Below are positions 39,084 through 43,825 of a stretch of 43,825 nt of DNA, in pieces. The DNA comes from Chlamydiota bacterium (GTDB lineage: Bacteria > Auribacterota > Tritonobacteria > UBA1439), in contig JAAYCL010000005.1 in assembly GCA_012729785.1 (NCBI GenBank), forward strand, positions 1-43,825, in the 5' to 3' direction. Both the position numbers and the translations under genes were made by a program. Below the pieces are notes generated by a model that was not told the origin of the DNA, made no database searches, and saw only the letters and a program-made list of their open reading frames with translations. Within the stretch, counting starts at the first letter, position 1. The number at the start of each line of letters is the position of its first letter.

Positions 39084-40031
39084 TCAGAGTTTTTCGATGA
39101 TTGCCTGCGCGAGGAGCGGGATCATGATCTCGTGGTGGCCGAGCAGGTACTGTCCGGTTCCCCCGGCGGCGACCGGCCGGCGGACCACGTTCTGGAGGGG
39201 GCGGTACTGGAGCAGCATGTCGAAGACCGCGGCGGTGAAGTTCCGCACCGGCCTGCCGGCGCTGCGGGCGACCGTGAGCGCCTTGAGGAACACCTCCGGC
39301 AGCACCACCGCCGAGCCGAGATGGAGCACGACGCCCCCGTTTCCGAGCCGCGCCACCACCTCCGCGAGGAGGCGGAAGTCGTCCATCGTCGTCTTGCCGA
39401 TGATCCTCCCGTCCGCCTGGGGGTGCTGGTGGATGATGTCGGTCCCGATGGCGATATGCACCGTCGCGGGGATGCGGAGGCGCACCGCCTCCGCGAGGAG
39501 GCTCGCCTCGCGGTGCGGGAGGCGGCGCTCGAGGATGTAGCGGCCGAGCGCCCATCCGGCCCCGAGCTCCTCCGCCTCGCCGAGGAGGAGCGCCTCGTTC
39601 ATCATCCGCCCCGTCTCGCGGGCCATCCCGAAGGTGCCGCGCTCGAGACCCGCCTGGACGTTCTCGGAGGTCTTGCCGATGAGGGCGACCTCGAAGTCGT
39701 GGATGCTCGTGGCGCCGTTCATCGCGATGGCGGTGACGGCGCCGCGGCGCATCAGGTCGATCAGGACGGGGCTCAGGCCGCACTTGACCACGTGCCCCCC
39801 CATCATGGCGATCACCGGCTTGCCGCGCCGGCGGGCGGAGACGACCGCGTCCACGACCGCGCGCAGCCCGGTGGCCGCCAGGATCCGCGGGAGGGAGTCG
39901 TAGAAGTCGCGGAACGAGGCCCCCTTCCGGCCGGGCCGCCCGAACATCGCGCGGGTGACCTTGTGCTTCCTCCGGGAGAGGGGGACCGTCTTCACGCGAC
40001 GATGCAGGGGAAACCGCGTTTTTTCAGCCAT
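39084..40031 (-). CDS. Deoxyhypusine-synthase-like conserved protein
   Basis: About 315 residues from the ATG at 40031; a TTG at 40061 would add ten. The pattern KPVIAMMGGHVVKCGLSPV, then GAVTAIAMNGATSIHDFE, then LAEAVRLRIPATVHIAIGTD resembles the NAD-binding deoxyhypusine synthase fold. It lacks the Lys-containing SWGK motif that DHS needs to make hypusine. A DHS reaction is therefore unlikely. It starts the heptose/Kdo cluster, 11 bases ahead of the heptose kinase, so a sugar-nucleotide or LPS-core role is more plausible. Uncharacterised. Confidence 0.6.
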   Translation of the reverse strand: MAEKTRFPLHRRVKTVPLSRRKHKVTRAMFGRPGRKGASFRDFYDSLPRILAATGLRAVVDAVVSARRRGKPVIAMMGGHVVKCGLSPVLIDLMRRGAVTAIAMNGATSIHDFEVALIGKTSENVQAGLERGTFGMARETGRMMNEALLLGEAEELGAGWALGRYILERRLPHREASLLAEAVRLRIPATVHIAIGTDIIHQHPQADGRIIGKTTMDDFRLLAEVVARLGNGGVVLHLGSAVVLPEVFLKALTVARSAGRPVRNFTAAVFDMLLQYRPLQNVVRRPVAAGGTGQYLLGHHEIMIPLLAQAIIEKL

Positions 40032-40253: not shown

Positions 40254-40364
40254 GGTGCAGCCCCTTTGCGCCCGCGCGAAGTGGAGGAACTCCTTCACCT
40301 ACCGGATCAGGTACGGCCGGTGCTTGGGAAGCACCAACTCCTACGCGCGCAAGAAATTGGAGCA
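40254..40364 (-). pseudogene. Remnant of a tyrosine recombinase (integron-integrase-like) N-terminus
   Basis: The minus strand reads CSNFLRA, stop, ELVLPKHRPYLIR, stop, VKEFLHFARAQRGC. This is the SAM-like N-terminal pattern of tyrosine recombinases (PYxxRWVxxFLxFA). Both interruptions are TAG (minus-strand codons at 40341-40343 and 40299-40301) in one frame 42 bases apart. The second stop falls where most relatives have Trp, one base change from TGG. No C-terminal catalytic region follows. It points away from the cassette genes, as intI does. Homology is by eye only. Confidence 0.5.
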
Positions 40365-40403
40365 GCCGTCCAGCACTGACTTCGACTGTTCATCGGTATC
40401 AGT

Positions 40404-40464
40404 CATAACGGAATACCCGTGTTATACACAAATCTCTATAACTACGGCATATCCGTTGTTATGG
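40404..40464 (+). other. Imperfect inverted repeat, attC- or attI-like, before the first cassette gene
   Basis: CATAAC (40404-40409) pairs with GTTATG (40458-40463). Inside, GGAATACCCGTGTTATA (410-426) pairs imperfectly with TATAACTACGGCATATCC (437-454), around a 10-base loop. Outer AAC/GTT boxes, inner arms and an asymmetric GTT spacer fit an att site, but the match to consensus is weaker than in the sites downstream. Confidence 0.35.
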
Positions 40465-40518
40465 TAATCGCCGAATTGCGTGACGCCAAGATCTTCTCTG
40501 GATGGAAGGAGGAAAAGA

Positions 40519-41400
40519 TTGACAGAACATCTGGTCGGCAATATTCTGGACGAGAGAAGCGCGGGGTTCTCTATAAACGGAGATTGTGTAGATAAACAAG
40601 TTCGAGCAAAACAGATGAAATGGTTCAGGCAACGCAGTGAACAGCCATCGAGATTCGATCCACCAGGACCAAGCCCATGGTATCTACGCGGAAGGAAGAT
40701 CGAGACAAGCGCAGGGATTCTCACTTGGGCTGACTTCGGCAATCATCCGGTCTTGGCGGGCGTGTCCCGTCTTCAGACTCGCGAATCCGCCGATGTCATG
40801 TTGCTGGACTTCGGCTGTTACTTCAGCCCGTTGGAGAGCGGTCTGATCCTACTGTGGTACGAACACGCCAGAAATGACGACGATCCAACCACGAATCCGT
40901 TCATCCACTTTGACATCATCGACCCTTCCGGCTTGACGCCCATAGAAGACGCCTCATCAGAAGCCGATCGAATGCGAAAGGGGAAGCAGCACCGAGTGTT
41001 TGCCCCGCCGGCGATAGCGGACTTCACTTGTTTCACCGCCCTTCCCTCTGGTCGACACAATCTCGCAGACTTACCTCCGGCGTTTGCGACGATTGAGGAA
41101 ACACTCGTCCTGGCCGACTACTGCCCGAACGGGAAACCGAGCAACTACTTCGACCAGATGTGTCGGGCAATCTTCGCCTTCGATTTCAGGGGGGGCCGGG
41201 TAGAAGTCATTCCTCAGGACTGGTTCAACGACGGGAAGTATGACTTCGGCTACCAATGGATCACACGTGTGGCGCGAGATCCAGACACGGGGCGCATCTT
41301 GGGGGACGGGATTCGACTCGGATTCTTCCGGCTAGACGAGACCGCGAGACACGTCGATGAGTGGCTCACAAGCGATCCCTTCTATGGACCAAGAGGATAA
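40519..41400 (+). CDS. Cassette gene 1: hypothetical protein
   Basis: The protein has 293 residues using TTG at 40519, which has AGGAGG six bases upstream; a GTG at 40480 has no such site. The sequence is water-soluble with no signal peptide or membrane segment. Segments such as WADFGNHPVLAGVSRLQT, MLLDFGCYFSPLESGL and CPNGKPSNYFDQMCRAIFAFDF suggest a folded alpha/beta protein, but no family was recognised. GC is lower than in the neighbouring LPS genes. It lies between an att-like repeat and a clear attC site, so it is treated as an integron cassette. Function unknown. Confidence 0.8.
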   Translation: MTEHLVGNILDERSAGFSINGDCVDKQVRAKQMKWFRQRSEQPSRFDPPGPSPWYLRGRKIETSAGILTWADFGNHPVLAGVSRLQTRESADVMLLDFGCYFSPLESGLILLWYEHARNDDDPTTNPFIHFDIIDPSGLTPIEDASSEADRMRKGKQHRVFAPPAIADFTCFTALPSGRHNLADLPPAFATIEETLVLADYCPNGKPSNYFDQMCRAIFAFDFRGGRVEVIPQDWFNDGKYDFGYQWITRVARDPDTGRILGDGIRLGFFRLDETARHVDEWLTSDPFYGPRG

Positions 41401-41406
41401 GAAGCT

Positions 41407-41468
41407 CGAACCAGCGCTTTCAGCCTATCGGCGGCCCGGGGCCGCCTCAGGCTGAAGCGTAACGTTCG
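41407..41468 (+). repeat. attC-like recombination site 1
   Basis: A 62-base site directly after the cassette 1 stop. R'' CGAAC (41407-41411) pairs with R' GTTCG (41464-41468). L'' CGCTTTCAGCCT (41415-41426) pairs with L' AGGCTGAAGCG (41449-41459) with one extra T on the L'' side, the extrahelical base seen in attC. Unpaired spacers CAG and TAAC separate the boxes, and a GGCGGCC/GGCCGCC hairpin tops the structure. This is the canonical attC plan. Confidence 0.8.
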
Positions 41469-41472
41469 CTGA

Positions 41473-42585
41473 ATGAAAGGAAACAAAACACAGATGACAC
41501 TCGCTTTACGTATTAGCTTGATGGCTCTCCTAATCACAGGCTTGGAAGCAGTAGCTTTTGGAGAAGAGAAAACGGGAATGGATGCCTTCAGGCTTATGCA
41601 AGAAGGAAAAGCGAAGGAGGCGATACAGATATTTGAGAATTTGTCGGCAAAAGGTGATACCAAAGCCATGGTACAGCTCGGACTCTATTATTATGAAGGA
41701 ACTGGGGTAAAACAAAACTATCCCAAAGCCATGGACTGGTGGTTGAAGGCGTTCACTAATCAGAACGCTGATGCATTTGTAAATCTCGGTGTCATGCACA
41801 GGGATGGTCAAGGCGTTCCAAAGAACAAGAAGATTGCGTATTGCGTTTTCCTGACAACGCACATGTGTGGCTTGGGTTCAGAATCCACCCAGTATCGTTC
41901 TAACAGTTCCCTCCGGCGAATCATGGAGGAACTCTCAAAAGAAGACATTAAAGATTGCCTCTCGAACTATACGCTCGGATACATTACGGCATACATCGAG
42001 GCCAGAGGGCAGATGAAAGGCATTCCGGACGAATACAAGCCCTCTGATGAGAATCCAGCACTCAAAGATACGGGCTGGTGGTTGGACAGTGAGCTTGACG
42101 CCATTTATGGACCGCCCACAGAAGCAGAAAAGAAGAGGCGAGAAGATAGAGACAGGCAGAGGCAGTTAGAAACAGCTTCCCTAAGACATACGTTGGTGTT
42201 TCAGATCAAGTTTCCAGAGAAGTCAGCGAAGCAGTTTCGATCCTATGACTTCATTACTGATCAAGGCATGGGTTCTGGACCCATTCCAGAGAAGAAGCTT
42301 GAGGGGCAAGGTGACTATCTTGTTTATGAAGATGATGCTCTGATTTACGCAAATCAGCATCGGTACGTGACAATTGAGAACGATAAGGATGAGACCATCG
42401 TCTTCAAGATTGATCATCCAGTCAAACCGGCCCCCTCTGATTGGAGCAAGTGGCAGAAAGCGGATTACATCTTAACAGATGGCATGGAGAAATTCACGCT
42501 TCTCCACGGGGGAGAACCAAAGAGCAGGAAAGTCGATGTGCCAGTCAACATGCCGACACTGAGATTCAAAATTATTAAGAAATGA
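41473..42585 (+). CDS. Cassette gene 2: exported Sel1-repeat protein
   Basis: The protein has 370 residues from the first ATG; Met8 at 41494 is the likely true start of the signal peptide and has AAAGGA upstream. Two Sel1-like repeats (about residues 60-130: GDTKAMVQLGLYYYEGTGVKQNYPKAMDWW and ADAFVNLGVMHRDGQGVPKN...) follow the signal sequence. A helical charged linker and a beta-rich C-terminal domain (about 235-370) follow. Sel1 repeats bind protein partners. The start codon lies only five bases after the attC R' box, as is normal for cassettes. Codon use and GC differ strongly from the upstream operon. Confidence 0.85.
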   Translation: MKGNKTQMTLALRISLMALLITGLEAVAFGEEKTGMDAFRLMQEGKAKEAIQIFENLSAKGDTKAMVQLGLYYYEGTGVKQNYPKAMDWWLKAFTNQNADAFVNLGVMHRDGQGVPKNKKIAYCVFLTTHMCGLGSESTQYRSNSSLRRIMEELSKEDIKDCLSNYTLGYITAYIEARGQMKGIPDEYKPSDENPALKDTGWWLDSELDAIYGPPTEAEKKRREDRDRQRQLETASLRHTLVFQIKFPEKSAKQFRSYDFITDQGMGSGPIPEKKLEGQGDYLVYEDDALIYANQHRYVTIENDKDETIVFKIDHPVKPAPSDWSKWQKADYILTDGMEKFTLLHGGEPKSRKVDVPVNMPTLRFKIIKK

Positions 42586-42587
42586 CA

Positions 42588-42644
42588 GCGAACAACCCAC
42601 TGAACGGTACGGCGTACCGCCGCCCGTTAGTGGAAGCGTTGAGC
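42588..42644 (+). repeat. attC-like site 2a
   Basis: It starts three bases after the cassette 2 stop. R'' GCGAAC (42588-42593) and R' GTTGAGC (42638-42644; fits GTTRRRY). L'' CCCACTGAACGG (42596-42607) pairs with L' CCGTTAGTGG (42624-42633), leaving one extra G on the L'' side. A GGTAC/GTACC hairpin lies on top. Confidence 0.75.
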
Positions 42645-42667
42645 CGACGCGTGCGCGTCGGCTCAAC
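42638..42667. repeat. Perfect palindrome joining sites 2a and 2b
   Basis: A 30-base perfect inverted repeat with 14-base arms and a 2-base centre (TG). The left arm begins with R' GTTGAGC of site 2a and the right arm ends with GCTCAAC, the R'' of site 2b. The two att boxes are thus held as mirror images. Confidence 0.85.
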
Positions 42668-42793
42668 GGGCGGCGGCTGTTCCCAGCCGCTGGCCGGTCC
42701 GCGCTGCGCGCGGCCCAACCAGCGGCTGGAGCCTACGGCCCTGCAGCGAGCAAGCTCGCCTCCGGTCCGAGGCTCAGCCGCCGCCCGTTCGGC
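42661..42793 (+). repeat. attC-like site 2b (long)
   Basis: R'' GCTCAAC (42661-42667), L'' GGGCGGCGGCTG (42668-42679), L' CAGCCGCCGCCC (42775-42786), R' GTTCGGC (42787-42793). The arms form a perfect 15-bp stem (42665-42679/42775-42789). The 95-base loop has nested hairpins, including CCAGCCGCTGG/CCAGCGGCTGG. The ribosome site AGGAGG of cassette 3 starts right after R'. Confidence 0.75.
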
Positions 42794-42803
42794 AGGAGGA
42801 AGA

Positions 42804-43190
42804 ATGACAGAACGGAAGATCATTGCGGGGACGACGATGTTCTTCGGCGTGCCCGCCAAGCCGATGCCGGAGATCATGGCGGATGCGATTGGTCAGATTG
42901 TCGCCCAAGTCCCCGGCATCGTCGAAGCGTATCTTCCTCAATGCTATGTCCAAGGCGACGAAGCAGCGAGGCAGGTACTTGTAGTCGGAGTCACTGCCAA
43001 AGACCAGATTCCGGCGATCATGCAACACCTCATGGGCAAGATGGAACTCGTCATGCCGCCCAAGCAGTTCATTGACATCCTTCCGTTTCAGGTCGCCGAC
43101 ATGCCATCGGAAGCAAGAGTCGCGGAGTGCAGGGTATTCGGGGGATCGAAGCCGCCAGAGCGCAAACAACCATGGTGGAAACTCTGGTGA
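42804..43190 (+). CDS. Cassette gene 3: SseB-C-terminal-like small protein
   Basis: The protein has 128 residues. It has no signal peptide. GVPAKPMPEIMADAIGQIVAQ...VEAYLPQCYVQ...RQVLVVGVTAKDQ and MPPKQFIDILPF resemble the SseB C-terminal domain, a small alpha/beta fold of unknown activity often found in mobile and immunity contexts. The tail is basic and Trp-rich (KQPWWKLW). AGGAGG sits just upstream of the ATG, immediately after the attC R' box. Cassette GC is lower than in the upstream clusters. Confidence 0.75.
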   Translation: MTERKIIAGTTMFFGVPAKPMPEIMADAIGQIVAQVPGIVEAYLPQCYVQGDEAARQVLVVGVTAKDQIPAIMQHLMGKMELVMPPKQFIDILPFQVADMPSEARVAECRVFGGSKPPERKQPWWKLW

Positions 43191-43197
43191 AATCAGA

Positions 43198-43254
43198 GCC
43201 GAACCAGCAAATGCTCGGTACGGCTTCGCCGCCCGAGAGTTGCAACGTTGAGGC
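43198..43254 (+). repeat. attC-like site 3a
   Basis: R'' GCCGAAC (43198-43204) and R' GTTGAGGC (43247-43254). L'' around GCAAATGCTCGG (43207-43218) pairs imperfectly with L' CCGAGAGTTGC (43233-43243), with a one-base length difference. A short CGGC/GCCG hairpin tops it. Confidence 0.7.
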
Positions 43255-43279
43255 GACGCGCTAAGCGCGTCGCCTCAAC
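43247..43279. repeat. Perfect palindrome joining sites 3a and 3b
   Basis: A 33-base inverted repeat with 15-base perfect arms (GTTGAGGCGACGCGC and its complement) and a TAA centre. It repeats the design of the 42638-42667 palindrome with a different sequence, so the arms co-vary. Confidence 0.85.
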
Positions 43280-43403
43280 GGGGCTGCGGCTGGCGCCGCT
43301 GGCCGGGGCGCGAGAAGCGCGCGCCCCAACCAGCGGCTCGACCGCACGGCCTGCGGCGGGCAGGCCCGTCTCCGGCCTCCGGTCAGCCGCAGCCCCGTTA
43401 GAT
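43273..43403 (+). repeat. attC-like site 3b (long)
   Basis: R'' CCTCAAC (43273-43279), L'' GGGGCTGCGGCTG (43280-43292), L' CAGCCGCAGCCCC (43384-43396), R' GTTAGAT (43397-43403; exact GTTRRRY). Perfect 16-bp stem (43277-43292/43384-43399). The internal loop shares CCCAACCAGCGGCT with site 2b. Confidence 0.8.
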
Positions 43404-43418
43404 TGCTATCGGATATAA

Positions 43419-43709
43419 ATGAACAGAACAAGCCAATACAAGCTTCTCTATCTCCTCGCAATGATTCTGATCGGTGCACCTGTTGTCTTCTGCATCTTTT
43501 ACTTTCGGCTTTCTTTGCAGGCAGTAATGCTTGTTGCTGTCTTGTTGCTCATTCCTGGAAGACTTCCTGGCTTTTTCTGGCGCGATTTTTCCCGTGGGCG
43601 CAAGCTCTTGAGTACAGGAGATTGGGAAAGCTCCCTGAAGTACTTCGAACGCTTTCTCTCTGAGGTGAAAAGGCGTCCCTGGCTCAAGCATTTTATTTGG
43701 GGCTCATGA
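43419..43709 (+). CDS. Cassette gene 4: membrane protein, probably cut by an insertion sequence
   Basis: The visible product has 96 residues and two membrane helices (about 9-30 and 33-50), then a soluble segment that looks like the start of a TPR (RKLLSTGDWESSLKYFERFL). Relatives as I recall them continue beyond RPWLKHxIW with further TPRs. Here the frame ends at IWGS where an ISL3-like element begins (about 43699), so the gene is probably truncated. No good ribosome site is seen; the start is 15 bases after attC R'. Confidence 0.6.
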   Translation: MNRTSQYKLLYLLAMILIGAPVVFCIFYFRLSLQAVMLVAVLLLIPGRLPGFFWRDFSRGRKLLSTGDWESSLKYFERFLSEVKRRPWLKHFIWGS

Positions 43710-43825
43710 CGGAATTTTGTGAGCCCAGGCCCATGGTTGGAAGCGTCCCATCCATGGGGTACAGGTTTGTATGATCTTGAGTTTCATGTACTCCTCGTCC
43801 CGATAGCCATAGGCACGACGGATCA
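43699..43825. mobile_element. End of an ISL3-like insertion sequence (partial)
   Basis: The element runs off the window end. Its visible end begins around 43699 with GGGGCTCATGACGGAATTTTG, similar to ISL3 termini, and contains a GGGCTCA/TGAGCCC inverted pair (43700-43706/43720-43726). The transposase C-terminus is encoded on the minus strand up to this end. The IS has landed in cassette gene 4. Confidence 0.6.
43704..43825 (-). CDS. ISL3-family transposase C-terminus (partial)
   Basis: About 40 C-terminal residues are visible, beginning IRRAYGYRDEEYMKLKII and ending AWAHKIPS. The RRAYGYRDxxYxxLKI pattern is the C-terminal end of ISL3-family DDE transposases. The catalytic residues and the rest of the gene lie beyond the window. 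Its stop falls inside the terminal repeat of the element. The frame is open to the window edge, so it could belong to an intact copy. Confidence 0.7.
   Translation of the reverse strand, partial: IRRAYGYRDEEYMKLKIIQTCTPWMGRFQPWAWAHKIPS

What the first reader, a model, noticed from the sequence alone, without database searches (positions are those of the whole stretch)
40404..43403. Integron-like cassette array at a strand and GC boundary
After the LPS cluster, three small genes on one strand alternate with foldable sites that have the attC plan: R''/R' with AAC/GTT cores, L''/L' arms with one extra base on the L'' side (seen at 41415-41459 and 42596-42633), unpaired spacers, and a start codon a few bases after each R'. 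GC drops and the genes are unrelated to each other. Seen directly: sites and layout. From knowledge of integrons: this is a cassette array. Inference: it is a decayed sedentary integron in an uncultivated lineage.
Basis: partly seen in the sequence, partly recalled or inferred. Interest (0 to 1): 0.85.

Follow-up and report, generated by a model that had tools for sequence, protein, structure and literature searches.

The report
Fossil integron with a dead integrase
This stretch is an old gene-capturing device (an integron) in an uncultured Auribacterota bacterium that keeps its docking site, promoter and stored gene cassettes but has lost its recombinase, down to a broken 51-codon stump; it is a well-documented case of a known kind.

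Summary
40.25-43.8 kb is a decayed chromosomal integron in a Ca. Auribacterota genome. (1) Window 40254-40406 (-) is the first 51 codons of an integron integrase with two in-frame stops, joined to a leader (40267-40605) 76% identical to the region between an intact intI and its first cassette in a same-family genome; it holds a Pc-like promoter and the attI crossover (40600). (2) An attC covariance model puts its four best hits of the whole contig here, all on the + strand. (3) Cassette starts are complementary to R'' of their own distant attC (0 of 20,000 shuffles). (4) The contig stops in an IS inside a cassette gene; contig C33 carries the other half, and the rejoined array sits between two genes that are neighbours in two other genera. 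No integrase gene passes the cut-off in this 96.6%-complete genome. New member of a known kind.

The parts
39084..40028 (-). left flanking chromosomal gene, GSU2086 family (NF052581)
   Evidence: NCBIfam 8.6e-126; next to acpS in G002 and G004
40254..40406 (-). stump of the integron integrase gene: codons 1-51, two in-frame TAG stops, rest missing
   Evidence: tblastn to the intact IntI of G005, 61% identity, E 1e-12 in a local set, 8e-13 genome-wide
40403..40464 (.). two conserved ATAAC...GTTAT palindromes just upstream of the intI start; likely operator(s) of the integrase promoter
   Evidence: conserved in the leader copies of four genomes; function inferred
40519..40547 (+). Pc-like cassette promoter TTGACA-17-TATTCT
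   Evidence: the TTGACA box is kept in most leader copies
40548..40605 (+). attI region; crossover GTT at 40600
   Evidence: aligned with the boundary before the first cassette of G005
40600..41463 (+). cassette 1; ORF 40615-41400 (261 aa, no known family)
   Evidence: start GTTCGAGC is the complement of its own R''; searches find no family
41405..41470 (+). attC of cassette 1
   Evidence: R2 32.1 bits; fold z -5.3
41464..42637 (+). cassette 2; ORF 41473-42585 (370 aa, Sel1 repeat)
   Evidence: Pfam Sel1 4.7e-12; start/R'' 8-base match
42587..42644 (+). attC of cassette 2
   Evidence: R2 24.3 bits
42638..42786 (+). ORF-less cassette: GTT-hairpin-AAC (42638-42667) plus long attC (42660-42793)
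   Evidence: alignment and compensatory pairs; R2 22.4 bits at 42713-42793; fold z -8.6
42787..43246 (+). cassette 3; ORF 42804-43190 (128 aa, SseB C-terminal domain); weak attC 43198-43253
   Evidence: Pfam SseB_C 7e-7; start/R'' 7-base match; R2 only 7.8 bits
43247..43396 (+). second ORF-less cassette; hairpin 43247-43279, long attC 43272-43403
   Evidence: (16.2 bits at 43324-43403)
43397..43700 (+). 5' part of cassette 4 (ORF from 43419, TPR membrane protein), cut by an IS; target duplication 43693-43700
   Evidence: 3' part and attC lie at C33:122-588; rejoined ORF is open over 197 aa; 10-base start/R'' match across the contigs
43701..43825 (.). end of an insertion sequence (inverted repeat GGCTCATGACG); the contig breaks inside it
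   Evidence: seven near-identical copies in the genome, several at contig ends

Best explanation
It is a decayed chromosomal integron. An integron platform (intI, its divergent promoter, attI and Pc) came to lie between acpS and the GSU2086-family gene, captured at least five ORF cassettes and three ORF-less cassettes by IntI-mediated attI x attC recombination, then lost its integrase: a deletion left 51 codons, which carry two stop codons. The array is therefore fixed, and the Pc at 40519-40547 probably still reads into the first cassettes. An IS later landed in cassette 4. Shown: the stump, the leader homology, the sites, the cassette boundaries, the insertion between genes that are neighbours elsewhere. 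Inferred: Pc activity, past mobility, present immobility, the order of events.
For: Integrase stump and leader homologous to an intact integron in the same family. attC model: the four best hits of the contig are all here on one strand (R1 agrees on the best two); in a heuristic whole-genome scan the best five lie in the C5, C20 and C36 arrays. Cassette-start/own-R'' complementarity, run sum 67 against a shuffled mean of 37 and maximum of 61, 0 of 20,000. Rejoining C5 and C33 across the IS restores an ORF, a 10-base start/R'' match and the acpS/GSU2086 neighbourhood of G002 and G004. intI over the curated cut-off in 13 of 59 genomes searched but not in this one.
Against: One attC (43198-43253) scores near background. 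The last ORF cassette on C33 matches its R'' only at the core. The genome is 96.6% complete, so an intact intI elsewhere could be missing. R2 was trained in part on arrays of the same family (not on the window). C5-C33 adjacency is inferred from sequence, not from reads.
Confidence: 0.95

Rival explanations
1. A functional integron system whose integrase lies on a missing part of the assembly and still serves this array in trans.
For: Genome 96.6% complete; leader, attI and most attC sites look intact; two leader-headed arrays persist in the genome.
Against: No integrase over the cut-off. Nearly complete genomes G003 and G004 of other genera also carry leaders with truncated intI and no integrase over the cut-off.
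Confidence: 0.12
2. A CALIN made by off-target insertion of cassettes at a non-att site by an integrase acting in trans, never with its own platform.
For: No intI over the cut-off in the genome; CALINs of this origin are proposed in the literature (PMC8618304).
Against: The array is headed by attI, a Pc-like promoter and the 5' stump of intI, in the same order and orientation as in an intact integron.
Confidence: 0.02
3. An ordinary operon whose hairpins are terminators or repeats.
For: Genes on one strand with hairpins between them; GC-rich DNA folds easily.
Against: attC model scores, no terminator-like hairpin on the + strand at any of the sites, cassette-start/R'' complementarity, no such genes between acpS and the GSU2086 gene in relatives.
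Confidence: 0.01

Closest known systems
Decayed Xanthomonas integrons at ilvD (PMC12444791)
   Same: chromosomal platform with intI inactivated by stops, frameshifts or deletions; stabilised arrays; further integrase-less arrays elsewhere in the genome
   Different: another phylum; the insertion site is empty in other genera of the family; here a second array also keeps its own attI/Pc leader
CALIN elements (IntegronFinder 2.0, PMC9024848)
   Same: at least two attC sites without an integrase gene
   Different: attI, Pc and an integrase stump are retained, so the origin by loss of intI is visible
ORF-less (gene-less) cassettes of Vibrio and Treponema-type integrons (PMC11014356, PMC6557892)
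   Same: cassettes with an attC and no ORF
   Different: about 150 bp, nearly all attC, with the cassette start and R'' forming a hairpin of about 13-15 pairs; one family recurs in three arrays of two genera; promoter activity untested

Membership tests
integron | tandem attC sites (R''-L''-L'-R', conserved fold) on one strand | tested here: met
integron | cassettes delimited by attC, cassette start complementary to its own R'' | tested here: met
integron | attI and Pc at one end of the array | tested here: met
   homology to the intI-array gap of G005 and TTGACA-17-TATTCT; activity not tested
integron | functional integron integrase gene (intI) | tested here: not met
   only a 51-codon stump with two stops; none over the cut-off in the genome. 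Filed as a decayed integron, not as a complete one
CALIN | at least two attC sites and no integrase gene | tested here: met
ORF-less cassette | attI- or attC-delimited unit with an attC and no ORF | tested here: met
   42638-42786 and 43247-43396; one copy sits directly at attI in the C20 array
ORF-less cassette | promoter activity, as shown for several in Vibrio | not testable with these tools
   needs a reporter assay

The most novel reading that the evidence does not exclude
In this Auribacterota family the attI-Pc leader with a clipped intI start was multiplied to several chromosomal loci and kept as an expression and docking platform, its arrays served in trans by an integrase that is now lost or sits on mobile DNA; the attC-only hairpin cassettes would be a selected, self-spreading cassette family.
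Probability: 0.15. Interest if true: 0.6.

Novelty: new member of a known kind. Interest (0 to 1): 0.4.

Why it matters
It documents integrons, with attC model hits in 27 of 43 genomes scanned, in a phylum for which I found no integron paper in the library, and gives a clean record of decay: stump, attI, Pc, cassettes, empty site in relatives and a later IS, all readable. The leader alignment gives an attI/Pc region outside class 1, where attI sites are poorly described (PMC9024848). The repeated clipped leaders and the attC-only cassettes pose a testable question about how integrase-less arrays are kept.

Tried and rejected
A plain fold scan (AAC...GTT with complementary arms) did not separate known attC sites from the 69%-GC background, so covariance models were used. 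Rfam at gathering thresholds gave only a tRNA. Xer-like recombinases at C33, C38 and C12 were considered as the integrase and rejected: they score far below the TIGR02249 cut-off, and the control genomes also give sub-cut-off matches. The leader was sought in G002 and not found beside its intI; its integron is of another type. Defence functions for the cassettes: no relevant PADLOC match. C42:109.0-111.9 kb looked like a further array but has no attC above background. Cassette 1 has no usable match among solved structures.

Full report
What was checked. The window is the whole of contig C5 of a 45-contig, 2.59-Mb genome assessed as 96.6% complete. A genome of the same family is titled Candidatus Auribacterota bacterium. 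GC falls from 69% to 46-57% in the ORFs after 40 kb.

The sites. A covariance model (R1) was built from ten attC sites taken from class-1 integrons on plasmids. In 50 loci, most of which carry an integron integrase, it found 71 sites, nearly all on the strand and side expected of a cassette array. A second model (R2), trained on those 71 hits (a few come from arrays of this family, none from the window), gives the four best hits of the whole contig at 41405-41470, 42587-42644, 42713-42793 and 43324-43403, all on +, at 32.1 to 16.2 bits, against 12.1 for the next best. R2 gives no hit at E 0.01 in any of the scanned genomes of one whole family of the phylum (f3), which serves as a negative control, and gives hits in 27 of 43 Auribacterota genomes. 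The site at 43198-43253 is weak (7.8 bits).

The platform. Window 40267-40605 is 76% identical over about 340 bases to G005:C368:431-771, which overlaps the start of an intact 429-aa integron integrase and reaches to its first cassette. In the window the first 51 codons of the integrase are recognisable (61% identity), carry two TAG stops, and the rest of the gene is gone. The leader has two ATAAC...GTTAT palindromes next to the intI start, a TTGACA-17-TATTCT promoter reading into the cassettes, and the crossover GTT at 40600. Promoter-like matches are about as frequent in shuffles, so the case for Pc rests on its position and on its conservation among leaders. Between window and G005, identity is 78% in the stump, 78% in the palindromes, 83% in Pc and 64-66% between them, so the leader is not clearly more constrained than the stump. 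No integrase over the curated cut-off exists in this genome; 13 of the 59 genomes in the relatives search have one.

Cassette boundaries. In an integron the first bases of a cassette pair with R'' of its own attC. For nine cassettes in this genome and G003 the matched runs sum to 67 bases, against a mean of 37 and a maximum of 61 in 20,000 reassignments of R''. The R'' ends were taken by hand, at model hits for most of them; one cassette (on C33) matches only at the core.

The right end. The contig stops inside an insertion sequence present in seven near-identical copies, several at contig ends. Contig C33 begins with the other end of an element with the same inverted repeat. Dropping the element and one copy of the 8-base duplication TTATTTGG gives a 197-aa open TPR membrane protein frame, and the cassette start on C5 matches R'' on C33 over 10 bases. 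C33 then holds an attC, one more cassette, an ORF-less cassette and acpS. In G002 and G004 acpS lies directly upstream of the GSU2086-family gene that flanks the array on C5, without an array. The array is thus an insertion of about 5 kb between genes that are neighbours elsewhere.

ORF-less cassettes. Units at 42638-42786 and 43247-43396 consist of a GTT-hairpin-AAC and a long attC. The hairpin is the cassette start facing its own R''. Copies lie on C33, C20 (one directly at attI), C36 and twice in G003. In the alignment 17 of 52 predicted pairs have changes on both sides that keep the pair (seven related sequences, so this is supportive only). Copies within one array look more alike than copies of different arrays, as expected from duplication inside arrays.

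Other loci. A second array in the same genome (C20 into C36, which share an exact 120-base contig overlap) has its own leader with a shorter, frame-broken integrase stump; C23 has a bare leader fragment; G003 and G004 have leaders with about 20-41 recognisable integrase codons or fewer. Within G000 the leaders are only 57-72% alike, so they are not recent copies of each other.

Reading. This matches what is known of Xanthomonas, where the platform is ancestral, intI is repeatedly lost and arrays then stay fixed (PMC12444791). It is a new member of a known kind. The unusual parts are several attI-headed arrays or leaders without integrase in one genome, and the attC-only cassette family; neither needs a new mechanism.

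Noticed in passing
L019 4764-6183 and L018 1-2650 (contigs C20 and C36): second leader-headed, integrase-less array of the same genome; cassettes include an Asp/Glu racemase and a GAF-domain protein.
   Followed up: partly
L087 3640-3730 (C23): isolated leader fragment (palindromes, no cassettes), closer to the G003/G004 leaders than to the window's.
   Followed up: partly
window 40403-40464 and the other leader copies: paired palindromes ATAACAC.GGAA.TTC...GTTAT at the intI start, a well-kept part of the leader; regulator unknown.
   Followed up: no
window 43701-43825: end of a multi-copy IS (seven near-identical copies) that breaks several contigs of this assembly.
   Followed up: partly
L192 4990-5150 and 7880-7950 (C42): eroded relatives of the ORF-less cassette without recognisable attC, possibly an older dead array.
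   Followed up: partly
G012 (many contigs): 55 attC model hits and two integrase genes over the cut-off: probably a large chromosomal integron in this phylum.
   Followed up: no
L085 6000-9500 (G004 C47): leader-headed array of another genus; by eye its further genes read like a DNA methylase and a restriction nuclease (not searched).
   Followed up: no
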